Shown here one piece after another: positions 224 to 48,047 of a stretch of 48,499 bases of DNA; position 1 is the first letter of the stretch, and each line of letters starts with the position of its first letter. The position numbers and the translations under genes were made by a program. The notes under the pieces are model-generated. The model had not been told where the DNA came from. It did not search any database and saw nothing but the letters and a program-made list of their open reading frames with translations. Origin of the DNA: an uncultured bacterium (GTDB lineage Bacteria; Chloroflexota; Anaerolineae; J036; Brachytrichaceae); contig CAIXPS010000272.1 in assembly GCA_903921365.1 (NCBI GenBank), positions 1 through 48,499 on the forward strand. The letters run 5' to 3'.

Positions 224-3137
224 GGAAACGGACAGGGATAAATGACGCCGAATTCATTCGGTAGCCGATCGCGATGCCTGCCAGTATTAGCCAGCAGGCG
301 ATGCCCGCCGCAGTCAGGATCGCCCCGTAATAGACCGATTGCGGCTCATAGGTCATCACGATGTGATGTTTGCCGGGAAGCACCGGAATGGCGCGGAAGA
401 GTTTGTCAATCGGGCTGATCAGCGCGTAGTCGTTGTCGACCTTCGCCGACCATCCCGGATACCACGCATCGCGCACGATGACGTAGCCAGGCGCTTCTGC
501 CTGGATATCGAGCACCATTCTCTCTGGCGCATCCTCCATGATTTTCACTGTTCCCGCGCCGGCAGCGCCGTCGACCAGGCCTGACGTGGTGAGTTCGGTT
601 CCCACAGTGCTACATTCGGCCAGTGCGGCGATGGTTACTCGCGGCGCCGGTCGCAGGTTTTCGTATATCTTGACGTCGCCCGAATGCACTAGTTGCATAG
701 TGAAACTGGCATGAATTTGTTGTGTCTTGAAGGCGCCGCTTGCTTCGTGAATGCTTGTCATTCCGAGAAGCGTCGTGCCCGTGGCTGTTGGAGTCAGCAC
801 CACGCGGGTAGGGGATTGCTGTTTCTGCCACGCAACCCTGACGCCAAAGTAGGGCTGCGTCACGGCGACAGTAGCGCGGATAGCGTCGGTTGCGATCAGG
901 GTGTCGTGGTCATATATGGCGACGTCCAGAAGCGTGTCTCCTGGCGATGCGTTCTGGGAGGTTAGCACAAGCCCGAGGGCGGTCGAGTCAAACGGAGCAA
1001 GGGGCAGGTTCCATGTCGTCGTGATGGCCTGCGGGAACTGAAGGTCGTAGTACACGTTGTCGACAAAAACATCACGCGTTTTGTCGGTGATGATGAAACG
1101 CACCGACATCTGTTCGAGCCACGTGTTGTCTGGGATGGTTTTCAACGCCTCGCGCAGGCGACCATCTGAGGTGCGGGGCTTCGGGTTTCCGTCGCCGCTT
1201 CCTGCGATGAACTGCTGGGTAAAACTCGCATAGCGAGCCAGGGGAAGAAGACCGCCGTCATACCCATCAACGCCCTGAATACGGTAGTACAGCGATAAGT
1301 TTGGCGAAAGGATTTCCTTTTGTTTGGATGCAATCACCCGATCGTACAGCTCGTCGGCGTTGAGTTGATCGTGGTAGATCATACGTTGTTCGACCAAGTC
1401 GCCCGGGTCGAAAAACAAGCCGGATAACGCCAGGACTCGTGACGCCGCCGGGCTGGTGGGATCCGTCAGCGCTTTATCTGCGATGAGGCTGGCCGTGGAT
1501 GGCCTGAGGTCGGTGAGTGCCTGCTCGTCCGACGCGCGGGAGTAGGGCTGAAATTGTGACGCGATAAGGAGTTCGCTTGCCAGCAGGACAACGAAAGGAA
1601 TTCCCGCTATTCTGGCGAACTGACTTGCCTTCATCCTTTGGAGCGTCGCAATGACGACTGTGACTCCGACTGCGCTGGCACACCAGCCGATGATGACCGA
1701 ACTGGCCGGCAGGGTTTTGTATTCTGCTTCTGGCGAAAAACGCGCGCCTGCAAGCAGTCCAGCGACCATGGCGATGCAGAGCAGTAGCCACGCAGCCAGC
1801 CAGGCGCGTTTTTGAGGCGACGTGAGACCGTCACGCAACGCCTGAACGCCATAACCGATCAACATGGGTGCTCCAACGGCAAATAGGATCAACCAGCGTG
1901 TCTGGGCGCGGAACAGGTTAAAACCTGGCATCAGGCGGTAGAGCAGGTTGAAGAGCGGTGTTGCGATCCCAAGCGCCAGAACGACGCCGGAAATCGGCAA
2001 GATGACCGCAATCAGGAACCAGACCGCATCCTCACTTATTGAGCCACACTCTGAACTATTGCCGATCATTGACCGAAGCCGAGGCACAATAGAAACTGCG
2101 CCAAGGAGCGCCAGCGCGATTCCAGTGACACCCAGATAGGTGACATATTCTGGAAAGAGCGGGTCGCCGTAAGTTGGCAGGAGCGCGCGCGCGATGACCC
2201 ATGGGCGCCACGAGAATGAGCCAACCTCGTTGATGGGCAAGCCGCCTGACCGCGCCGATTGCGTGGCAAGTTCCGCGGTTGGCAGGAGCTGTATGGCGGA
2301 CACGAGAGCTGCAAGCCCGATCGAAACGGCGATGACTGTGAAGATTGCCATCATTGTGGTTATGCTGAATCGCGCCTTAGGCTTTGCAAGTGCGCGTGTG
2401 CGTGTACGAGAGATGATGCCAGCAACAGCGATGATTGTGAACGTGAACCCCGCGATCCCCAGCGCGACCATGCAGATATACAGCGACTGCGTATGCCCTG
2501 CCAGCAGTTGCAAGGCGATCAATAGTGACAACAGCGCGATGTGGCTGATGACCGAACGTTTTGTTGGTTTCACTGACCCAAGCAGCGCCAGTTCAAAGGG
2601 GAGCCAGGCAAGCACCTGGAGCTGGTTCAGGTGTTCCACCTGGGCGCCGAGGTATCCACCCAGGCCAAACGAGATTGCGCAGGCAAGTGAGGCGAGCGTG
2701 CCGAGTCGCAGCTGGGTGCGAGCGAGCACAAACATGCCGACGGCGGCGATGCAGAGATGCAGGGCGATGTTCCACGAAACGGCATGCCCAACAGGGAACC
2801 AGGCGGTGAGCACATTCAGGGGGTAAAAGAATCCCGCCTGGGAATTCGCCAGAAACGGCGCCCCCATAAACGTATAGGGGTTCCATAAGGGCAGTGTTCC
2901 TGTGCGTAATGCAGCAGAGGCGTAATCGCGCAACGGATAGAAATAGAGGAGCAAGTCGCCACGAGCGATCACACGGTTTCCCACCGTCAATTTCCATGTC
3001 GCAGCCAGCACGAGGAATAACGCCAGCGCGAAACCCAGCCACGTTAGCCCACTTGTGGAAAACCTGTGGATAGTGTTATGCTTGGGCAGTATAGAATGTG
3101 AATCGGTGTCAAGAGTTTCCGATCGTTGTCGCTTCAT
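216..3137 (-). CDS. YfhO-family multi-spanning membrane protein
   Basis: A 973-residue membrane protein resembling the YfhO family, which are GT-C-like proteins linked in Firmicutes to glycosylation of cell-surface polymers. Residues about 30-52 form the first membrane helix. The loop after it carries the family-like stretch RGDLLLYFYPLRDY, then PLWNPYTFMGAPFLANSQ. Further helices continue to about residue 540. Residues about 550-920 form a large extracytoplasmic part, and a last helix lies near 936-958, after a TYEPQSVYYG motif typical of YfhO tails. The ATG at 3137 gives a basic cytoplasmic N-terminus before the first helix and is divergent from rpsR. The last three codons and stop lie in a copy of the 104-bp repeat. 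Family is fairly sure; the sugar donor and acceptor cannot be told. Confidence 0.8.
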   Translation of the reverse strand: MKRQRSETLDTDSHSILPKHNTIHRFSTSGLTWLGFALALFLVLAATWKLTVGNRVIARGDLLLYFYPLRDYASAALRTGTLPLWNPYTFMGAPFLANSQAGFFYPLNVLTAWFPVGHAVSWNIALHLCIAAVGMFVLARTQLRLGTLASLACAISFGLGGYLGAQVEHLNQLQVLAWLPFELALLGSVKPTKRSVISHIALLSLLIALQLLAGHTQSLYICMVALGIAGFTFTIIAVAGIISRTRTRALAKPKARFSITTMMAIFTVIAVSIGLAALVSAIQLLPTAELATQSARSGGLPINEVGSFSWRPWVIARALLPTYGDPLFPEYVTYLGVTGIALALLGAVSIVPRLRSMIGNSSECGSISEDAVWFLIAVILPISGVVLALGIATPLFNLLYRLMPGFNLFRAQTRWLILFAVGAPMLIGYGVQALRDGLTSPQKRAWLAAWLLLCIAMVAGLLAGARFSPEAEYKTLPASSVIIGWCASAVGVTVVIATLQRMKASQFARIAGIPFVVLLASELLIASQFQPYSRASDEQALTDLRPSTASLIADKALTDPTSPAASRVLALSGLFFDPGDLVEQRMIYHDQLNADELYDRVIASKQKEILSPNLSLYYRIQGVDGYDGGLLPLARYASFTQQFIAGSGDGNPKPRTSDGRLREALKTIPDNTWLEQMSVRFIITDKTRDVFVDNVYYDLQFPQAITTTWNLPLAPFDSTALGLVLTSQNASPGDTLLDVAIYDHDTLIATDAIRATVAVTQPYFGVRVAWQKQQSPTRVVLTPTATGTTLLGMTSIHEASGAFKTQQIHASFTMQLVHSGDVKIYENLRPAPRVTIAALAECSTVGTELTTSGLVDGAAGAGTVKIMEDAPERMVLDIQAEAPGYVIVRDAWYPGWSAKVDNDYALISPIDKLFRAIPVLPGKHHIVMTYEPQSVYYGAILTAAGIACWLILAGIAIGYRMNSASFIPVRFRG
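3054..3073 (-). other. Pair of DnaA-box-like 9-mers inside a coding region
   Basis: TGTGGAAAA (3054-3062) and TGTGGATAG (3065-3073) read on the minus strand as TTTTCCACA and CTATCCACA, close to the DnaA-box consensus TTATCCACA, with starts 11 bp apart. They lie within the N-terminal codons of the YfhO-like gene, near the divergent promoter region of rpsR. Two matches this close are notable, but the sequence is also constrained by coding, so chance is quite possible. Confidence 0.3.
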
Positions 3138-3244
3138 CGCAATGATTGTAAACTGAACCTGTCATCGAGTGTAAATAGTGGTAAAATCACTTGCCCGATA
3201 CGGAAGGCAACTTTATCACGCATATTAGAGGTCAAGGAGCAGCA

Positions 3245-3583
3245 GTGGAAGATAATATCCCAGGCGCAATCGGCGCCGAAGATGATGGTTCGGATTCGCC
3301 CTCGCGCAATCGAGGTAAGCGACCATTCCGGAGCAACTCGAATAGTTATGATCGAAACGCGGTGCGCCCTAAGCGCATCGATGAGTTTGCCACAACCGGC
3401 ACTGTGCCAGATTATAAAGATTATGAGAAGCTGCGCCGGTATGTGAATCCGCAGGGCAAAATCCTGCCGCGCCGCCGATCCGGGTTGAACGCCAAAAATC
3501 AGCGTTTGCTTGCCCGCGCCATTAAGCGCGCGCGCCACCTGGCGCTGCTGCCGATTGCCGGCGCAACGCCGACCTGGATGTAG
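3245..3583 (+). CDS. rpsR: 30S ribosomal protein S18
   Basis: S18 binds 16S rRNA with S6 on the platform of the small subunit. The 112-residue product has an acidic then basic N-terminal extension of about 40 residues, followed by the conserved core [20 protein letters not shown], then [20 protein letters not shown] and ARHLALLPI. The start is taken as GTG at 3245 because AAGGAG lies at 3234-3239, five to six bases upstream; an in-frame ATG at 3191 lacks such a site and would add residues unlike S18. rpmG follows after 21 bases. The usual neighbours rpsF and ssb are not present; the gene starts divergently from the YfhO-like gene. Confidence 0.93.
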
Positions 3584-3604
3584 TCACAAAGAGAGGCAAT
3601 AGCC

Positions 3605-3769
3605 ATGGCAAAGAAAAAAGGAAACCGCGTCGTTATCAAGCTGAAGAGCGCCGAGAGCGGACATGTCTACTGGTCAGAGAAGAATCGCAAGAATGACACT
3701 GGCCGGCTTGAGATTCGCCGCTATGATCCGACGCTGCGCAAGCACGTCGTCTACAAAGAAGAGAAGTAG
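3605..3769 (+). CDS. rpmG: 50S ribosomal protein L33, cysteine-free type
   Basis: A 54-residue protein of the large subunit. It begins [15 protein letters not shown] and continues [19 protein letters not shown], then [18 protein letters not shown], which matches the L33 pattern of E. coli closely. It has no cysteine, so it is the zinc-independent (C-minus) form. A purine-rich AGAGAGGCAAT leader precedes the ATG, 21 bases after the rpsR stop, so the two are almost certainly co-transcribed. The basic composition and length fit the family exactly. Confidence 0.95.
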
Positions 3770-3777
3770 CAGAGAAG

Positions 3778-3849
3778 AGAGATTGGAGATTTGGGATTAG
3801 GGATTAGAGACTCCAATCTCCAATCTCCAATCTCCAATCTCCAATCTCT
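3778..3849. repeat. Five-copy TCCAATC heptamer array forming a hairpin after rpmG
   Basis: TCCAATC is repeated five times at 3812-3846. A perfect 12-bp inverted repeat, AGAGATTGGAGA at 3778-3789 and TCTCCAATCTCT at 3838-3849, brackets the array, with two GGGATTAG-like words in between. The purine-rich left arm can pair with several registers of the array. It fills the space between the convergent rpmG and sucD, so it may serve as a two-way terminator, although neither side carries a clear T-run. Heptamer number is likely to vary between strains. Confidence 0.8.
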
Positions 3850-3861
3850 AGTCCCTCTTTC

Positions 3862-4722
3862 CTACCTCAACAAGTCCGGAATCTGTGTCGGCAGGTCCGC
3901 CATTTTGATCCCGGCAGCCTGCATCGCCGTTACTTTCCCCTGCGCAGTCCCCATGCCGCCTTCGATGATGGCGCCGGCGTGACCCATGCGCTTACCTTCT
4001 GGGGCCGCTCGCCCGGCGATAAAGCCAGCCATCGGTTTCTTTACATGATCTTTGACGTAAGCGGCAGCAATTTCCTCGTCTGAGCCGCCGATTTCACCAA
4101 TCATGACGATCTTCTCCGTCTGCGGGTCTTCGTTAAACAACTTGATGGCGTCGAGGAAGTCCAGGCCGTGCACCGGGTCGCCGCCGATCCCGACGCAGGT
4201 GCTTTGCCCCATACCGCTCTGGGTCAGCGCATTAATGACTTCGTAGGTGAGTGTGCCGCTGCGCGACACCAGTCCCACGTTGCCCGGTTTGCAGATGGAT
4301 GCGGGGATGATGCCAATTTTGGCCTGTCCTGGCGTGATCAGGCCGGGGCAGTTGGGGCCAATCAGAATCACATCGAGCGTGTCGAGATAGGCGCGCACGC
4401 GGATCATATCCTGGACGGCAACGCCTTCGGTGATGCAGATGATCAGATGGATGCCGGCGTCTGCGGCTTCGAGAATTGCATCGGGCGCGAACCGGGCAGG
4501 CACGTAGATGACTGATGCATTTGCCCCGGTCTCCCGCACAGCCTGACCGACCGTGTCGAACACCGGCACACCGTAATCTGTTTTCAAGCCGCCTTTTCCA
4601 GGGGTGACGCCGCCGACGATTATCGAACTGTATGCCTGCATCTGGCGGGCGTGGAAATCTCCTTCGCGGCCGGTGATGCCCTGAACGATCAAGCGTGTGT
4701 TGCGATCTGCAAGAATAGCCAT
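3862..4722 (-). CDS. sucD: Succinyl-CoA synthetase (ADP-forming), alpha subunit
   Basis: Catalyses, with SucC, the interconversion of succinyl-CoA, phosphate and ADP with succinate, CoA and ATP in the TCA cycle; cytosolic. The 286 residues match family length (E. coli 289). The N-terminal CoA-binding Rossmann domain holds the stretch [20 protein letters not shown] and GGVTPGKGG. The phosphorylated active-site histidine is His248 in [10 protein letters not shown], with the glycine-rich [10 protein letters not shown] loop after it. The gene starts 15 bases after hisIE, with AGGGA upstream of the ATG, and is the last gene of the train. Its partner sucC lies more than 5.6 kb upstream, on the other side of the whole his operon. 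Confidence 0.95.
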
Positions 4723-4737
4723 TATTTACAATCCCTT

Positions 4738-5397
4738 TTATGTGTTGGACGGATAGTGTCTGTCGCTCAGTCGTTGAACGACTTGTCGAAGCGACACATT
4801 GCGTTCGTTTAACAGGACTAACAGGTGATAGATCAGGTCAGCGGATTCATCGATCAGTCGATCGTCATCCTGGGCAACGCCAGCCATTGCGACCTCCAAC
4901 CCTTCTTCGCCCACTTTTTGTGCGATCTTGTGTCGCCCCTTGGCGAACAACCGCGCTGTATAGCTGCTGTCGGGTGAGGCGGTGCGGCGTTGGGCGATGA
5001 TCCCGGCGAGTTCATCGATGAAACCTGCCGCCGGCCCTGTCTCGGCTGTGCCGATGGCTTTGTCGATGGCTTTGCCATCCAGGATCTGCCAGAAACAGCT
5101 TTCTTTGCCTGTGTGGCAGGTTGGGCCAGCCGGTTCTGCGCGAATCAGGAGGGCATCGCTATCACAATCCGCACGTAGCTCGCGCACACGCAGCACGTTG
5201 CCGCTGGTTGCGCCCTTGTGCCATAGCTCCTGGCGGCTGCGCGAGTAGAACCACACTTCGCCGTTATTCAGTGTTAATTCGAGAGACTCGGGGTTCATCC
5301 AGCCGAGCATCAGGACGCGACCCGTGATCGCATCCTGGACGATGGCGGCTATCAGCCCGTTCGCATCGTATTTGAGAGTGGTTGACATCGGGGTCAT
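4738..5397 (-). CDS. hisIE: Phosphoribosyl-AMP cyclohydrolase / phosphoribosyl-ATP pyrophosphatase
   Basis: Bifunctional enzyme for the second and third steps of histidine synthesis. The N-terminal HisI domain (about residues 5-110) shows [18 protein letters not shown], the signature [16 protein letters not shown], and zinc/metal residues in [10 protein letters not shown] and [11 protein letters not shown]. The C-terminal HisE domain (about 125-215) shows [20 protein letters not shown], then EGLEVA and the metal-binding [13 protein letters not shown]. The length of 219 residues is usual for the fusion. Starts at residue 1 (5397) or 4 (5388) are both possible. It follows hisF by 30 bases and precedes sucD by 15. 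Confidence 0.95.
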
Positions 5398-5427
5398 TAT
5401 AGGCGGTAAGGCATGCCAGCAAGGGCG

Positions 5428-6186
5428 CTACAGGCGCACGGGGATGCCTCTGCCCGCAAGATATTCCTTTACCTCGCGGACGCGAAAGGTTTTGTAATGG
5501 AACACCGATGCTGCCAGCACGGCGCTCGCGCCTGCGGCGATGGCGTCATAGAAGTGTTCTAATTTTCCTGCGCCGCCGGAGGCGATGACTGGAATGTTGA
5601 GAGCGTGACTGAGTGTGTGGAGCAATGGAAGATCATAGCCATCCTGTCGACCGTCCGTGTCCATACTGGTCAGCAGTATCTCGCCGGCGCCGCGCGCTTC
5701 AGCCTCAATGGCCCACTTCACCGCGTCCAACTCGGTCGGCACGCGCCCGCCATTCAGGTAGACGCGCCAGCCATTGATGGAGCTATCCGCCTTTGCGTCG
5801 ATGGCGACAACCACGCACTGCGCGCCAAATCGATAAGCCGCCTCGTTGATGAGGGTGGGGTTGCGCACCGCCGAGCTGTTGATGCTGATCTTGTCCGCGC
5901 CTGCCAGCAGCAACTCGCGAAAATCCTCCGGCGCGCGCACACCGCCGCCAATCGTGAACGGGATGAACACCTCGTCCGCCACTCGGCGCGCCATTTCGAT
6001 GGTCGTGCCGCGGCCTTCGTGCGAGGCCATGATGTCGAGAAATACCAGTTCGTCGGCGCGTTCATCGTTGTAGATGCGCGCCTGTTCGACGGGGTCGCCG
6101 GCGTCGCGCAGATTGACGAAATTGACCCCTTTGACGACGCGTCCATTGGCAACGTCGAAACAGGGAATGATCCGTTTGGCTAACAT
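5428..6186 (-). CDS. hisF: Imidazole glycerol phosphate synthase, cyclase subunit
   Basis: Closes the imidazole ring from PRFAR and the ammonia delivered by HisH, giving imidazole glycerol phosphate and AICAR. The 252 residues fold as a beta-alpha barrel. The catalytic aspartates are seen in [15 protein letters not shown] (Asp10 or 11 region) and [10 protein letters not shown]. Phosphate-binding loops are visible as [18 protein letters not shown], and [12 protein letters not shown], with [19 protein letters not shown] between them. It lies 8 bases after hisA, so translation is probably coupled. Confidence 0.96.
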
Positions 6187-6194
6187 GCGTTCCT

Positions 6195-6938
6195 CTAATA
6201 TCCCTTCGCTGCTTCGATGGATTCGCGCAACGATAGCGTGCCTTCATACAAAGACCGACCAATGATGACGCCTGCCACACCGCGATGGGCGTACATCAAA
6301 AGCTCCTTGATGTCGTCAAGGTTGCGCACCCCTCCGGAAGCAATGATCTGCAACTCGGTAAGCTGTGCCAGAGCGCCGGTCATCTCCGCCGCCGGGCCTG
6401 TCATCATGCCGTCACGCCCGACCTCGGTGTAGAGCGCGTGCACCACACCCATTTGGTGCATTAAAACGCCCAGTTCCGCTGCGGGCATTTGAGTGCTCTG
6501 TTTCCAGCCGCGGGTCACGATCATGCCGTCGCGCGAATCCAACCCGATCACGACGCGTTCCGCGCCGTAACGCGCCAGTGTTTCTGATACAAGGCGGGGA
6601 TCTTCAGCAGCCGCAGTTCCAAGCACGACGCGGTCAGCGCCGGCGTCAAACGCAGCCTTTATATCTTCGATCGTGCGCAGTCCGCCGCCAAATTGAACCT
6701 TGATTTTGATGCTTGAGGCGATCGCGGAAAGCGCCTGCCGGTTGGGGCGACCGGTCGCAGCGTCGCCAAATGCGCCGTCAAGGTTCACCACATGCAGCCA
6801 TGATGCGCCCTCACTCGCCCAGCGATTCGCGACGGCAATCGGGTCCTGTGAATAGGTTGTCTGTTGCGCCGGGTCGCCTTGCTTCAAGCGGACGACGTTG
6901 CCGTTGCGGATATCGATTGCGGCATAAACCGTAAACAT
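6195..6938 (-). CDS. hisA: ProFAR isomerase
   Basis: Isomerises ProFAR to PRFAR by an Amadori rearrangement, the fourth step of histidine synthesis. The 247-residue barrel has the general base in [17 protein letters not shown] (Asp8) and the general acid in [11 protein letters not shown]. Phosphate-binding loops are [15 protein letters not shown] and [13 protein letters not shown], and [13 protein letters not shown] is also typical. The ATG overlaps the hisH stop by one base (TGATG on the minus strand), which is a classic coupled start. A PriA-type dual role is not indicated, since a full his set but no trp gene is near. Confidence 0.96.
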
Positions 6939-7573
6939 CAGGCTGCCTCCACAAAGTTTCGGAGTATTCGCAGACCCACATCCTGGCTTTTCTCCGGGTG
7001 GAACTGGATACCCCAGATTCTGTCTTTTGCGACGATAGACGCGAAGTCATACCCGTAATAGGTGGTTGTCACCACGTAGGCGGGATCGTCAACGACCGGG
7101 TGATACGAGTGCACAAAGTAGGCGTAGCCGCCGCGCGGCACGCCGGCAAGCAGTGGATGTTCCTGCGCCGGTTCTATCTGATTCCAGCCAATGTGCGGCA
7201 CTTTCAGGTGGAGAACGGATGGGTCAGCACCGGCAAGCGCGTCAAACTTAAAACGCACGATGCGGCCTGGAATGAGACCCAGCCCGCTCCACTCGCCCAT
7301 CTCCAGACCCACATCAAACAGCAACTGCATGCCGACGCAGATGCCCAGCAGGGGTTTACCCGATCGCCCAATCTGCTGCAACGGCTCAAACAGGCCTCTA
7401 TCGATGAGCCCCTGACGGCAATCGGCAAAAGCGCCGACGCCGGGGAGCACGATCTTATCGGCGCTCTCAATGATTCGAATATCGCTGGTTAACACGGGCT
7501 GCGTGCCGACGTGTTCCAGCGCTTTGCACACATTGCGCAGGTTGCCTGCGCCATAATCAATCACTGCAATCAT
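6938..7573 (-). CDS. hisH: Imidazole glycerol phosphate synthase, glutaminase subunit
   Basis: Class I glutamine amidotransferase that supplies ammonia to HisF. With the ATG at 7573 the product is 211 residues and begins MIAVIDYGAGNLRNV, the usual HisH start; an upstream in-frame start at 7603 adds ten residues overlapping hisB and is less likely. The triad is Cys79 (GICVGMQL), His192 and Glu194 (QFHPEK), and the oxyanion loop is PGVGAF at 44-49. It begins 19 bases after hisB and its stop overlaps the hisA start. Confidence 0.95.
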   Translation of the reverse strand: MIAVIDYGAGNLRNVCKALEHVGTQPVLTSDIRIIESADKIVLPGVGAFADCRQGLIDRGLFEPLQQIGRSGKPLLGICVGMQLLFDVGLEMGEWSGLGLIPGRIVRFKFDALAGADPSVLHLKVPHIGWNQIEPAQEHPLLAGVPRGGYAYFVHSYHPVVDDPAYVVTTTYYGYDFASIVAKDRIWGIQFHPEKSQDVGLRILRNFVEAA

Positions 7574-43852: not shown

Positions 43853-45412
43853 ATGAACACGATTATTGGCCTTGACATCGGCGGAACCAAGACGGCCATA
43901 TTAGAGGGCGATTATGACGCCGCTATTCTGCAGCGCATCGAGATACCCACGCAGGCAAGCGATCCATTCACGGTCACTTTTGAGCGCATTTGTGCGCAAG
44001 TGGACGCTGCGCTGAAAACCGCGCGTGACGCCGGGCGCAGTGTAGACGCCGTGAGTGTCTCGATAGGCGGCCCGCTCAAGATTGAGGAAGGCATCATCCT
44101 GGCGCCTCCGCATCTGCCCAACTGGGTGGATGTCCCGTTGAAAGCCCTGCTGCAGCAGCGCTATGGGTTGCCGGTTTTTGTTGAGCACGATGGCAACGCC
44201 GGCGCGCTCGCAGAGTACTATTTCGGGGCGGCGCAAGGGACGCGTAACGCGATTTTTCTGACCGCCGGCACAGGACTGGGCGGCGGATTCATCCTCGATG
44301 GGCGCTTGTATCGCGGCACGACAGATACTGCTGGTGAAGTCGGGCATATCCGCCTGTCTGAAGAAGGCCCGGTTGAGTATGGGAAAGCCGGTTCGTGGGA
44401 GGCGTTTTGCAGTGGCGCAGGGATGGTCAAGCTGGCCCACAGGTTGTATCCGGGATACTGGCCGCAAACACTCACGACGCGCGAACTCGTCACGGCTGCA
44501 AACGCTGGAGACGAAGCCGCGCGACAGGTGATTCGCCGGTCTGGTGAGTATCTGGGACGCGGCCTGGCGATTCTCGTCGATACGCTTAATCCTGAGGTGA
44601 TCGTCCTTGGCAGCCTGGGCGGCGCTTTGGGTGATCTCTTTCTTGACCCGGCGCGACAGGTCGTTCGTGACGAATGCCTGTCTCAACCGGCAGCGGCCTG
44701 CCGTATCGCCCCGGCTGCCCTTGGCGCCCGCATCGGCGATGTTGCAGCGCTGGTTGCCGCTATCAGCGCTCAGCGCAATAAGATCAAAAGCGGCACACCA
44801 CCGCCAAACCATGATGATGGAGTAACAATGTCGAATTCGACAATCGCAGTGACCACTCAGTTTTCAAACGCACTCGCCGATAGCGTCAGAGTGCAGACCA
44901 GTCTGATTCAGATCGCAGATGTCATCGAGGCCTCGGCGCAGGCGATCGTCGGCGCATTGCAGCAGGGTCGCAAGGTGATCGTCTGCGGTAATGGCGGAAG
45001 CGCCGCACAGGCACAGCATCTTGCCGGCGAGTTAGTCGGCAAATACGGCCCGGTGCGCAAGGCGTTGCCATCCATCGCGCTCACCGCCGACTCCGGGATC
45101 GTGACATGCATCGCGAACGATTTCGGTTATGACCAATTGTTCTCGCGGCAGGTAGAAGCCTATGCCCAGTCCGGGGATATCGTGATCGGGATCACGACGA
45201 GTGGGAAATCGCCCAACGTGCTCAAGGCGCTGGAAACTGGTCGTCAGAAGGGTGCAGTAACGATTGCCATGACCGGCGAGCGCGGTCTGGTCGGATCACA
45301 GGCCGATTGTGTCGTTGCCGTGCCAAGCGGCAGCACAGCGCGCATCCAGGAGGCGCATGCGTTTATCGTGCATTACTGGTGCGATGCCGTCGACGCTGCT
45401 TTCCCGGCCTGA
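43853..45412 (+). CDS. Fusion of ROK sugar kinase and GmhA-type phosphoheptose isomerase
   Basis: A 519-residue two-domain protein. Residues 1-305 are a ROK kinase: ATP site GLDIGGTKTA (6-15), catalytic Asp113 in EHDGNAG, and TAGTGLGGGF. The ROK zinc site keeps His165 (GEVGHI), but the three cysteines of the CxCGxxGCxE motif are Val174, Tyr176 and Ser181. A 20-residue linker follows. Residues 326-519 match GmhA, which turns sedoheptulose-7-phosphate into heptose-7-phosphate: CGNGGSAAQAQHLAGELVGK with His389 and Glu393, FGYDQLFSRQVEAYAQSGD, and Gln499 and His507 at the E. coli zinc-ligand spacing. A GGAG site and an in-frame ATG at 44828 could also start the GmhA part alone (194 residues; E. 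coli GmhA 192). Confidence 0.9.
   Translation: MNTIIGLDIGGTKTAILEGDYDAAILQRIEIPTQASDPFTVTFERICAQVDAALKTARDAGRSVDAVSVSIGGPLKIEEGIILAPPHLPNWVDVPLKALLQQRYGLPVFVEHDGNAGALAEYYFGAAQGTRNAIFLTAGTGLGGGFILDGRLYRGTTDTAGEVGHIRLSEEGPVEYGKAGSWEAFCSGAGMVKLAHRLYPGYWPQTLTTRELVTAANAGDEAARQVIRRSGEYLGRGLAILVDTLNPEVIVLGSLGGALGDLFLDPARQVVRDECLSQPAAACRIAPAALGARIGDVAALVAAISAQRNKIKSGTPPPNHDDGVTMSNSTIAVTTQFSNALADSVRVQTSLIQIADVIEASAQAIVGALQQGRKVIVCGNGGSAAQAQHLAGELVGKYGPVRKALPSIALTADSGIVTCIANDFGYDQLFSRQVEAYAQSGDIVIGITTSGKSPNVLKALETGRQKGAVTIAMTGERGLVGSQADCVVAVPSGSTARIQEAHAFIVHYWCDAVDAAFPA
44819..44830 (+). promoter_or_regulatory. Internal Shine-Dalgarno and ATG in the ROK-GmhA gene
   Basis: GGAG at 44819-44822, five bases, then ATG at 44828-44830, in frame at residue 326. 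The position is exactly the start expected for a free-standing GmhA (MSNSTIAVTTQFSNALADSV). This site would allow a second, shorter product, or may be a relic of two formerly separate genes joined by loss of a stop codon. Confidence 0.6.
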
Positions 45413-45462
45413 GCGTTTGACGCGCACAGGTGTGCTGTCCGGGAATGCAATCCGTTTATGAA

Positions 45463-45547
45463 TAGGGCGGGTGGGAGTCGAACCCACACGCTACTTTCGT
45501 AACAGAAGATTTTAAGTCTCCGGCGTCTGCCATTTCGCCACCGCCCC
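45463..45547 (-). tRNA. tRNA-Leu(UAA)
   Basis: An 85-base tRNA on the minus strand. Acceptor stem GGGGCGG pairs with CCGCCCT (a G-U pair at 1-72), followed by discriminator A. The D arm is GCG-AAATGGCAGA-CGC, the anticodon arm GGAGA-CTTAAAA-TCTTC with anticodon TAA, and the T arm GTGGG-TTCGACT-CCCAC. A long variable arm (TTAC GAAA GTAG core) marks a class II tRNA as expected for leucine. The 3' CCA is not encoded. It decodes UUA. It lies between the converging ROK-GmhA gene and a divergent MFS gene. Confidence 0.96.
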
Positions 45548-45566
45548 ATATTCACGGATACAAATA

Positions 45567-45583: not shown

Positions 45584-46864
45584 ATGAGAAAAATGGCAGT
45601 CACTCGGTCTGACAAACGCAATTTCTGGGCGCTGGTCGCAGAAAAGGCAGGCTTCGGCTTCGCCCTTTCGTTCGCCGGCCCCTATACGGTTCTGACCGCG
45701 CTTGCAGCACAACTGACCACATCCGCGATTGTGATTGGCTCCATCACGACCGTATGGAATGGGGCGCTGTTTCTCCCGGTTTCGTTCGTGGCGCGCTGGA
45801 TACGCAATCACAGCGAGCGCATGCCGATCATTCGCCGTTTATTCCTGGGCCGCGCACTGGCTTTCCCGGTTGTGGCGCTGTGGCTATTCTTCACCAGGGC
45901 GGCAGACCCAGTCTTGACCCTCGCCGTATTGATCGCCGGCATGCTGGTCTTTTGCCTGTCGGACGGGGCAAACTCGATTCCGTACATCGATATGGTGGCG
46001 CGCATCATGGACTCAAAGACGCGCGCCAAAATGACCTGGCAAGGGCTATTGCTTGGCGGCGTATTGGGGATCGCTGGCAGTTTTGTGGTGCAACGCGTTC
46101 TCACCCCAGGCGTGATGCCTTTCCCCGTTAACTTTGCGTTTCTGCTGGGGCTGGCTGGGCTGATTTTCTTTGGCGCATGGCTGTGTATCTGCCTTGTCCC
46201 GGAGCGAGATGTCCAGGCCGCGCGACACCGCGCGCAGGTCGAGGGCGATGCAGCGGATCGTCGCGGCTTTGTGGAGATTCTCCGCCATGACCGGGTCTTC
46301 CGCCGCATGCTGCTTACCCGGTTATTCACAGGCGCCGATCAGATGGCCGTGCCGTTTTATACCGTATTCGGGCTGACGGTTTTGAAGTTATCTCCCGAGA
46401 CGGTGGGGCTTTTTGTGGGCGCGCAGACGATTGGCGCGTTGTTGGCCCCGATCATCTACGGCTGGATCGCCGTGAATTCAGGCGCGCATCGGGTGATACA
46501 AGTGGGTGCGCTTGTTCAGCTCAGCAGCCCGTTAATTGGCGTTGCCGTCGTAGTGCTGGGGGCTGTTGTGCCTGCGCTCAGCCCTGCCATTGCACTGGCT
46601 TTTGTTGCAACTGGGTTCAGCAACAGCGGCATGGCGCTGGGATACTATAACTATCCGCTGGACTGGTGTCCTGACTGTGACCGCCCCAATTACATGGCGC
46701 TACTGAGTATTGTCAGCGCGACATCGATGCTTGCGCCGCTGATTGGCGGCTTGGTTGCGCAGTCATTCTCATATCTCGCCTTGTACGGGTTTACAGCGTT
46801 GCTTGTCCTCCTTGGCGCAGTCATCGGGGTCGGCCTGCCGGATATGCGCATGCGCCATACATAG
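45584..46864 (+). CDS. MFS transporter
   Basis: A 426-residue major-facilitator carrier with about 12 predicted helices, beginning near KAGFGFALSFAGPYTVLTAL. The first-half cytoplasmic loop is WIRNHSERMPIIRRLFLGRA; the central loop with RDVQAARHRAQVEGDAADRR separates the halves; the last helix ends near VIGVGLPDMRMRHT. ATGs at 45584 and 45593 are both possible. Its substrate is unknown. An enolase-superfamily dehydratase gene starts 28 bases downstream, so uptake of a sugar acid is possible (inference only). It has the same overall build as the MFS protein at 19815-21152. Confidence 0.85.
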   Translation: MRKMAVTRSDKRNFWALVAEKAGFGFALSFAGPYTVLTALAAQLTTSAIVIGSITTVWNGALFLPVSFVARWIRNHSERMPIIRRLFLGRALAFPVVALWLFFTRAADPVLTLAVLIAGMLVFCLSDGANSIPYIDMVARIMDSKTRAKMTWQGLLLGGVLGIAGSFVVQRVLTPGVMPFPVNFAFLLGLAGLIFFGAWLCICLVPERDVQAARHRAQVEGDAADRRGFVEILRHDRVFRRMLLTRLFTGADQMAVPFYTVFGLTVLKLSPETVGLFVGAQTIGALLAPIIYGWIAVNSGAHRVIQVGALVQLSSPLIGVAVVVLGAVVPALSPAIALAFVATGFSNSGMALGYYNYPLDWCPDCDRPNYMALLSIVSATSMLAPLIGGLVAQSFSYLALYGFTALLVLLGAVIGVGLPDMRMRHT

Positions 46865-46892
46865 TTTAAGATTCGAGACAGGAGACAACCAA

Positions 46893-48047
46893 ATGAAGAT
46901 CACGGATGTGAAGACGTATATCGCCGGAAACCCCTGGAAAAACTGGGTGTTTACCCGTGTGGAAACGGATGAGGGTGTTCACGGAATAGGCGAAGGAACG
47001 CTGAACGGATTTGCTAAGACAGTGGAAGCAGCCATTCACGAACTCAAGCAGTTTGTGATCGGTGAGGACCCGTTCAATGTAGAAACGCATTCCTTGCGGA
47101 TGTTCCGCGACGTGTATTCTGACGGCGGTCAGATTCAGGGTAGCGCACTGGCTGCGATCGAATACGCCTGCTGGGATATCATGGGCAAAGTGACGAACCA
47201 GCCCGTTTACAAACTGCTGGGCGGACGATCACACGACCGCTTGCGGGTATACGCCAACGGGTGGTATCGCGGGCCGCGCACGCCGGAGAGTTTTCATGAA
47301 AAGGCGAAGGCCGTTGTCGCGCGCGGGTATACGGCGCTGAAGTTTGACCCATTTGGCCCCGCCTGGCGCGCGGTTGATCGTGAAGACTTTGCGCTCGCGA
47401 TCGAGATCATTGGCGCAGTGCGCGCCGCCGTTGGGCCGAATGTCGATGTGCTGGTTGAAGGGCACAACCGCTTCAGCGTGCACACTGCGTTGCAGTTCGC
47501 GGACGCGATGGCGAAGTTTCAGCCGACCTGGTTCGAGACGCCGGTGCCGCCGCAGCGAATCTCATCGATGGTTGCTGTCGCGCGACGGAGCCCGGTCCCG
47601 ATTGCCTGCGGCGAAGATTATTACACGCGCGAACAATTCAGCGAGTTGTTGATGCACGACGCCGTTCATATCATCCAGTTGGAGCCGCAGTTTCTGGGGA
47701 TTACGGCCGCGAAGCAGGTGTGCGCGATGGTGCATGCCTACAACGGCGTAACCGCGCCACATAGCGCGCAGGGGCCGCTGTGCTCGGTGGCGTGCGCACA
47801 TTTGAACACGGCTACGCCCAATTTCTTCATCCATGAGATATTCGATGACTTCAACGACGATTGGAGCGGTGAAATATTGACAAACCCGGTCAAGGTCGTG
47901 GATGGGCACATTACGCTGGGTGATGATCTGCCGGGGTGGGGCACTGACTTGAACTACGAGGAGATTGCCAAACACCCCTATAACCCGAACAACTTCCTGC
48001 CATTGTTCCGGCAGGGTTGGGAACGCCGCAAGCCGGTGGAGAGGTAG
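46893..48047 (+). CDS. Enolase-superfamily sugar-acid dehydratase (galactonate-dehydratase-like)
   Basis: A 384-residue barrel enzyme of the mandelate-racemase/muconate-lactonising group. From the ATG at 46893 (GGAGACAACCAA upstream) it begins MKITDVKTYIAGNPWKNW; the reading frame is open further up, into the MFS gene, but without family similarity. Metal ligands are Glu189, Glu215 (WFETP) and Glu241 (CGED), at the 26-residue spacing of E. coli DgoD, whose first ligand is Asp. His191 (EGH) and His290 (APHSAQGP) match the DgoD acid/base histidines, and Lys150-x-Asp152 occupies the second-strand position. The substrate is therefore likely a sugar acid, but not surely galactonate. Confidence 0.87.
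   Translation: MKITDVKTYIAGNPWKNWVFTRVETDEGVHGIGEGTLNGFAKTVEAAIHELKQFVIGEDPFNVETHSLRMFRDVYSDGGQIQGSALAAIEYACWDIMGKVTNQPVYKLLGGRSHDRLRVYANGWYRGPRTPESFHEKAKAVVARGYTALKFDPFGPAWRAVDREDFALAIEIIGAVRAAVGPNVDVLVEGHNRFSVHTALQFADAMAKFQPTWFETPVPPQRISSMVAVARRSPVPIACGEDYYTREQFSELLMHDAVHIIQLEPQFLGITAAKQVCAMVHAYNGVTAPHSAQGPLCSVACAHLNTATPNFFIHEIFDDFNDDWSGEILTNPVKVVDGHITLGDDLPGWGTDLNYEEIAKHPYNPNNFLPLFRQGWERRKPVER

What the first reader, a model, noticed from the sequence alone, without database searches (positions are those of the whole stretch)
43853..45412. ROK kinase fused to GmhA isomerase, with lost zinc cysteines and an internal start site
Sugar kinase and sedoheptulose-7-phosphate isomerase domains lie in one 519-residue frame. 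All three zinc cysteines of the ROK motif are replaced (Val174, Tyr176, Ser181) while His165, ATP-site and catalytic Asp113 remain, suggesting a zinc-free ROK with unusual substrate. The GmhA half keeps His389, Glu393, Gln499 and His507. A good ribosome site plus ATG at residue 326 could give GmhA alone, so one gene may yield two products. The pair could couple isomerisation of a heptulose phosphate to phosphorylation of a heptose, bypassing a separate HldE kinase (inference).
Basis: partly seen in the sequence, partly recalled or inferred. Interest (0 to 1): 0.65.

Follow-up and report, generated by a model that had tools for sequence, protein, structure and literature searches.

The report
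Fused sugar kinase and heptose isomerase
One gene of an uncultured Chloroflexota bacterium encodes a sugar kinase joined to a seven-carbon-sugar isomerase; the fusion is real and kept in a small group of relatives, and both halves carry unusual active-site changes that can be tested, but its exact substrate is unknown.

Summary
The 519-codon frame at 43853-45412 encodes a complete ROK sugar kinase (residues 1-312), a disordered linker and a complete GmhA-type isomerase (333-519). It is not an assembly error: six genomes of the window's family carry the full fusion (a seventh is cut at a contig end), as does one more distant Anaerolineaceae genome.

The missing zinc cysteines mark a whole ROK clade, mostly unfused, in several phyla; zinc-free ROK kinases are already known. 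The internal ATG is not conserved. Bypass of HldE is unlikely: the genome also encodes an HldE-like PfkB kinase fused to a HAD phosphatase, next to a GSU2086 gene.

The best unfused counterpart lies in an operon GSU2086-SIS / PfkB / ROK / GmhA.

Most likely it is a bifunctional kinase-isomerase of heptose-phosphate metabolism; the substrate is inferred. It is a new domain architecture built from known families.

The parts
43853..45412 (+). Fused ROK kinase-GmhA isomerase gene, 519 aa
   Evidence: translation; Pfam and NCBIfam; full-length homologues; AF2 model mean pLDDT 90.6
43853..44788 (+). ROK sugar-kinase half, residues 1-312
   Evidence: Pfam ROK 5-295; VIA-align Z 32-35 to ROK glucokinases and ManNAc kinase
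44186..44191 (+). His112-Asp113: catalytic Asp, preceded by His where most ROK kinases have the sugar-binding Asn
   Evidence: alignment of ROK relatives; role of Asn and Asp in PsNagK (PMC10031466)
44372..44395 (+). Former zinc motif, residues 174-181 (VEYGKAGS instead of CxCGxxGC)
   Evidence: alignment
44789..44851 (+). Variable, disordered interdomain linker, residues 313-333
   Evidence: pLDDT under 50 at 317-333; length and sequence vary between fusions
44819..44830 (+). Possible internal ribosome site GGAG and ATG (Met326); not conserved
   Evidence: sequence; other fusions lack it
44849..45409 (+). GmhA-type isomerase half, residues 333-519, with zinc ligands H389, E393, Q499, H507
   Evidence: NCBIfam gmhA; alignment with 2xbl; VIA-align Z 29.3 to 1tk9, rmsd 1.4 over 187
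45008..45010 (+). Gln386 at the position of GmhA Asp61 (half-site coupling residue)
   Evidence: Gln in all six complete family fusions, Glu in L037, Asp in 57 of 74 rows compared; D61 role in PMC5705639
41729..43819 (+). Polyphosphate kinase PPK1, 33 nt upstream on the same strand; kept beside the fusion in five other genomes of the family
   Evidence: NCBIfam PRK05443; synteny

Best explanation
The gene encodes one bifunctional enzyme of heptose-phosphate metabolism. The zinc-free ROK half most likely phosphorylates the terminal hydroxyl of a seven-carbon sugar (or a related sugar) with ATP. [quoted passage not shown] The pair would feed, or drain, a second fused enzyme encoded elsewhere in the genome, an HldE-like 1-kinase joined to a HAD phosphatase beside GSU2086. 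Shown: the fusion, its conservation, intact catalytic residues, the two fold assignments, the clade-wide motif changes, and the operon with the unfused counterpart. Inferred: both reactions, the substrate, the direction and the link to the PfkB-HAD enzyme.
For: Both halves fold as complete enzymes and keep catalytic residues. An unfused ROK that groups with the fused ones (branch 100/99; exact place open) lies in the operon GSU2086-SIS / HldE-I-like PfkB / ROK / GmhA / ROK2 in L039, with ROK and GmhA in the fused order. A second zinc-free ROK group has a GmhA-like gene directly beside it in three genomes (L019, L020, L023). GSU2086 stands between hldE and gmhA in Geobacter, where transposon hits in all three give similar defects (PMC5585712). 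In the window's class the ROK clade occurs with GSU2086 in 13 of 15 genomes against 38 of 283 others (Fisher p 2e-9); inside the window's family 4 of 5 against 0 of 16 (p 8e-4). G000 carries GSU2086 plus the PfkB-HAD fusion and no other GmhA.
Against: The GSU2086 link is not general: in the class of G311 (Ignavibacteriota) 2 of 7 ROK-clade genomes have GSU2086 against 57 of 142 others, and the strong class-wide p-value is inflated by relatedness. Fusion genomes G099, G301 and L037 lack GSU2086. In G000 the fusion and the GSU2086-PfkB-HAD pair lie on different contigs. ROK-only relatives sit in unrelated neighbourhoods. L037 has lost the ExGH His (GEVGF). Substrates cannot be read from the sequence.
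Confidence: 0.42

Rival explanations
1. The ROK half is an ordinary hexose (glucose or mannose) kinase and the GmhA half an independent isomerase; the fusion joins two neighbouring genes without metabolic coupling.
For: Nearest solved ROKs are glucokinases (3vov). ROK-only relatives lie in varied contexts. The GSU2086 association fails in another class.
Against: The Asn-to-His change beside the catalytic Asp is clade-wide and Asn contacts the sugar in NagK. Zinc-free ROK and GmhA-type genes are also adjacent, unfused, in L019, L020 and L023 and in the L039 operon. The linked state is kept with strong purifying selection on both halves.
Confidence: 0.28
2. A salvage enzyme: ROK phosphorylates free D-glycero-D-manno-heptose (or a similar aldose) and GmhA runs in reverse to sedoheptulose 7-phosphate, which enters the pentose phosphate pathway. 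Logic as in mannose kinase plus mannose-6-phosphate isomerase.
For: G000 has no GmhB hit and no second GmhA, so a full canonical heptose-nucleotide route is not evident. Relatives that do have canonical GmhA-HddC-GmhB type genes (L144, L145, L149) keep the fusion as a separate gene, which suggests a separate role.
Against: G000 has an HldE-like kinase-phosphatase fusion that could serve synthesis. No heptose transporter or glycosidase link was shown.
Confidence: 0.18
3. One reading: the ROK half takes the place of HldE and phosphorylates the heptose phosphate made by GmhA.
For: A kinase is fused to the GmhA step; no HldE over the curated cut-off in G000.
Against: ROK kinases act on a terminal hydroxyl, which in the GmhA product is already phosphorylated. 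G000 has an HldE-domain-I-like PfkB fused to a phosphatase. L039 has PfkB and ROK in one operon.
Confidence: 0.05
4. The kinase half uses polyphosphate instead of ATP, made by the PPK1 encoded just upstream.
For: PPK1-fusion synteny in six genomes of the family; a polyphosphate/ATP glucomannokinase (1woq) is among the ROK matches.
Against: L037 lacks PPK1 beside the fusion. Similarity to 1woq is weak (9.5e-15). The standard ROK phosphate motif DIGGTK is intact.
Confidence: 0.07

Closest known systems
ROK family sugar kinases (Thermus GlcK 3vov, Streptomyces GlkA 3vgk, ManNAc kinase 2yhy)
   Same: Fold, DxGxT phosphate motif, catalytic Asp, ExGH motif
   Different: No zinc cysteines; His instead of Asn before the catalytic Asp; joined to an isomerase
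Fusobacterium nucleatum NanK (5nck), a zinc-free ROK kinase
   Same: Loss of the CxCGxxGC motif with the rest of the active site kept (PMC5458393)
   Different: Keeps the sugar-binding Asn; single-domain; 26-27% identity in the aligned structure
GmhA, sedoheptulose 7-phosphate isomerase (2xbl, 1tk9)
   Same: Fold and all four zinc ligands; 39-42% identity
   Different: Gln in place of Asp61; fused to a kinase; below the curated NCBIfam cut-off
Human GNE (UDP-GlcNAc 2-epimerase / ManNAc kinase)
   Same: A ROK kinase fused to another sugar enzyme of the same pathway (PMC2742894)
   Different: The partner is an epimerase and lies before, not after, the kinase; different sugar
HldE and HddA/GmhB heptose pathway enzymes
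   Same: Same likely metabolite, heptose 7-phosphate
   Different: Heptose kinases are PfkB or GHMP folds that act on C1; none is a ROK

Membership tests
ROK family kinase | Pfam ROK domain over gathering score | tested here: met
   188.9 bits against 22.9
ROK family kinase | DxGxT phosphate motif, catalytic Asp, ExGH sugar motif | tested here: met
   DIGGTK, Asp113, E162-V-G-H165; motif definition from PMC5458393
ROK family kinase | CxCGxxGC zinc motif | tested here: not met
   V174, Y176, S181; absent in the whole clade. Published ROK kinases without it exist, so this does not exclude membership of the fold family, only of the zinc-containing majority
ROK family kinase | Sugar-kinase activity | not testable with these tools
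   needs purified protein
GmhA phosphoheptose isomerase | Zinc ligands H64, E68, Q175, H183 | tested here: met
   H389, E393, Q499, H507
GmhA phosphoheptose isomerase | Curated equivalog cut-off (TIGR00441 209 bits, PRK13936 276 bits) | tested here: not met
   174.3 and 182.2 bits; no GmhA in 28 family genomes passes the TIGR00441 cut-off, so not decisive. I call it GmhA-type, not a proven GmhA
GmhA phosphoheptose isomerase | Asp61 of the inter-site water channel (half-site coupling) | tested here: not met
   Gln386; Gln in all complete family fusions, Glu in L037; D61A leaves 6% activity and no half-site effect in B. pseudomallei (PMC5705639)
HldE heptose kinase | PfkB fold with C1 phosphorylation | tested here: not met
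   The kinase half is ROK, not PfkB

The most novel reading that the evidence does not exclude
The EHDGN-type zinc-free ROK clade is a new substrate class, a heptose or heptulose 7-kinase. With a GmhA freed from half-site coupling by the Asp61-to-Gln change, and with the PfkB-HAD fusion beside GSU2086, it would form an undescribed heptose-phosphate route condensed into two fused enzymes.
Probability: 0.22. Interest if true: 0.7.

Novelty: new variant of a known kind. Interest (0 to 1): 0.42.

Why it matters
No ROK kinase is known to act on heptoses (own knowledge; none surfaced), and heptose metabolism in Chloroflexota is little studied. The fusion points to a candidate 7-kinase clade, to a GmhA that should lack the half-site cooperativity described for Burkholderia GmhA, and to a possible role for the uncharacterised GSU2086 family. 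Each can be tested with purified proteins.

Tried and rejected
Assembly or frameshift artefact: rejected, because independent genomes carry the same fusion. Two products from the internal ATG: not rejected for this genome, but not conserved. A universal ROK-GSU2086 link: rejected after the control in a second class gave 2/7 against 57/142, although 11 of 16 hand-picked ROK-clade genomes outside the first sample had GSU2086. Zinc loss as a special trait of the fusion: rejected. Fused GmhA as the canonical GmhA of all relatives: rejected, since G238, G099 and G301 have a second GmhA in clusters with HddC-like and GmhB-like domains. Monophyly of the fused ROKs: one origin is possible, but the tree leaves L037 and L039 unresolved. 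One family scan failed on wrong coordinates. Literature on a ROK-GmhA fusion: none found in the held library.

Full report
What is there. The frame at 43853-45412 (+) encodes 519 residues. Residues 5-295 match Pfam ROK (1.9e-55) and 353-475 match SIS_2 (7.6e-25); NCBIfam gives phosphoheptose isomerase for the second half, below the equivalog cut-offs. Nearest solved chains are Thermus glucokinase 3vov for the first half and Burkholderia GmhA 2xbl for the second. An AlphaFold2 model from a 28-row alignment has mean pLDDT 90.6, with one disordered stretch, 317-333, between two well-formed domains. VIA-align gives Z 34.8 to glucokinase 2qm1 over residues 1-311 and Z 29.3, rmsd 1.4, to phosphoheptose isomerase 1tk9 over 331-517. 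The fold matches show families, not substrates.

It is not an artefact. A search of 298 genomes of the class found full-length fusions only in the window's genus (G000, G293) and one sister genus (G238, G275, G099). A search of all 28 genomes held for the order added G301 in full, and G300, whose fusion is cut at a contig end. The genome-contig scan added the Anaerolineaceae bacterium NAT290 (L037, 54% identity). dN/dS against L034, L036 and L037 is 0.06-0.23 in both halves; dS against L035 was saturated. PPK1 lies directly upstream in all six of the family's genomes that could be read there, but not in L037.

The kinase half. In 27 relatives with 50-60% identity, from Chloroflexota, Acidobacteriota, Ignavibacteriota, Bacteroidota and a planctomycete, all but one unfused, the three zinc cysteines are absent wherever the stretch is covered, and the loop reads [YF]GKxGS[WL]E. 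So zinc loss is a clade trait. Fusobacterium NanK shows that a ROK kinase can lack the zinc site with its active site intact (PMC5458393). The same clade has His in place of the Asn before the catalytic Asp (EHDGN instead of ENDAN). In PsNagK that Asn (N104) binds the sugar and the Asp (D105) is the catalytic base on the 6'-OH (PMC10031466). A changed substrate is therefore plausible, but which one is inference. L037 has in addition lost the ExGH His.

The isomerase half. The four zinc ligands of Burkholderia GmhA are kept. The residue at Asp61 is Gln in all six complete fusions of the family and Glu in L037; Asp stands there in 57 of 74 rows compared, and no unfused row has Gln (my script's 2xbl numbering runs one higher than the published numbering). 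In Burkholderia GmhA, Asp61 links paired active sites through a water channel; D61A has 6% activity and no half-site effect (PMC5705639). The fused isomerase is thus predicted, not shown, to lack half-site coupling.

Gene context. Five lines link these proteins to heptose metabolism, of unequal weight. (1) L039, an Anaerolineae contig, has the operon GSU2086-SIS fusion / HldE-domain-I-like PfkB / ROK of the same clade / GmhA / another ROK; its ROK groups with the fused ones plus an acidobacterial set at 100/99, with its exact place open. (2) A second zinc-free ROK group has a GmhA-like gene immediately upstream in L019, L020 and L023. (3) GSU2086 lies between hldE and gmhA in Geobacter sulfurreducens, and insertions in the three give similar defects on electrodes (PMC5585712). 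(4) HAD, GSU2086 and PfkB genes recur together in this class, and in G000, G293, G238 and G275 the PfkB kinase and the HAD phosphatase are themselves fused beside GSU2086. (5) In the class, the ROK clade and GSU2086 co-occur (13/15 against 38/283; p 2e-9), and within the family 4/5 against 0/16 (p 8e-4). The class p-value treats relatives as independent and overstates the case; the within-family one rests on few events.

A control cut this down. In 149 genomes of the class of G311, 7 have the ROK clade and 2 of these have GSU2086, against 57 of the other 142. The link is therefore a feature of Anaerolineae at most, not of the ROK clade in general.

Pathway state of the genome. G000 has no GmhB hit, no GmhA other than the fused one and no HldE over the cut-off, but it has the PfkB-HAD fusion, which could supply a 1-kinase and a phosphatase. 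Several relatives (G238, G099, G301) hold in addition a canonical-looking cluster: in G099 one 675-residue protein with SIS, nucleotidyltransferase and HAD domains, and a GHMP kinase nearby. The fusion is thus not simply their standard GmhA.

The internal start. GGAG and ATG326 are present in the window. Of the other six complete fusions only L034 has a Met there, without a GGAG. A separate 194-residue product is possible in this genome but has no comparative support.

Verdict. The most likely role is a bifunctional kinase-isomerase on heptose phosphates (0.42). The HldE-bypass idea is unlikely (0.05). Novelty lies in the architecture and in the candidate substrate class; both protein families are well known.

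Noticed in passing
L151 (G000:C33) 2751-5919: GSU2086 gene followed by an HldE-like PfkB kinase fused to a HAD phosphatase (702 aa); same pair in G293, G238 and G275. Looks like a kinase-phosphatase fusion for heptose 1,7-bisphosphate turnover.
   Followed up: partly
L145 (G099:C16) 5104-7128: A 675-aa protein with SIS, nucleotidyltransferase and HAD domains in one frame (GmhA-HddC-GmhB type fusion), near a GHMP kinase gene.
   Followed up: partly
L039 223-1893: GSU2086 domain fused to a GmhA-like SIS domain; same fusion in L206, L207 and L208.
   Followed up: partly
L021 1426-2436, L022 1483-2475: ROK-like proteins with degenerate active-site motifs (EHRSN, GDIGN or GDIGR), probably not kinases.
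   Followed up: no
window 45462-45548: tRNA-Leu (TAA) on the minus strand just downstream of the fusion.
   Followed up: no
window 46743-48047: Enolase-superfamily gluconate/galactonate dehydratase-like gene, conserved downstream of the fusion in L034 and L035.
   Followed up: no
L042, L043, L051, L052: In Ignavibacteriota and a Bacteroidota genome the ROK clade gene lies with an ArgE/DapE-type deacylase, a uroporphyrinogen-decarboxylase/MtaA-like protein and a large uncharacterised protein; function unknown.
   Followed up: no
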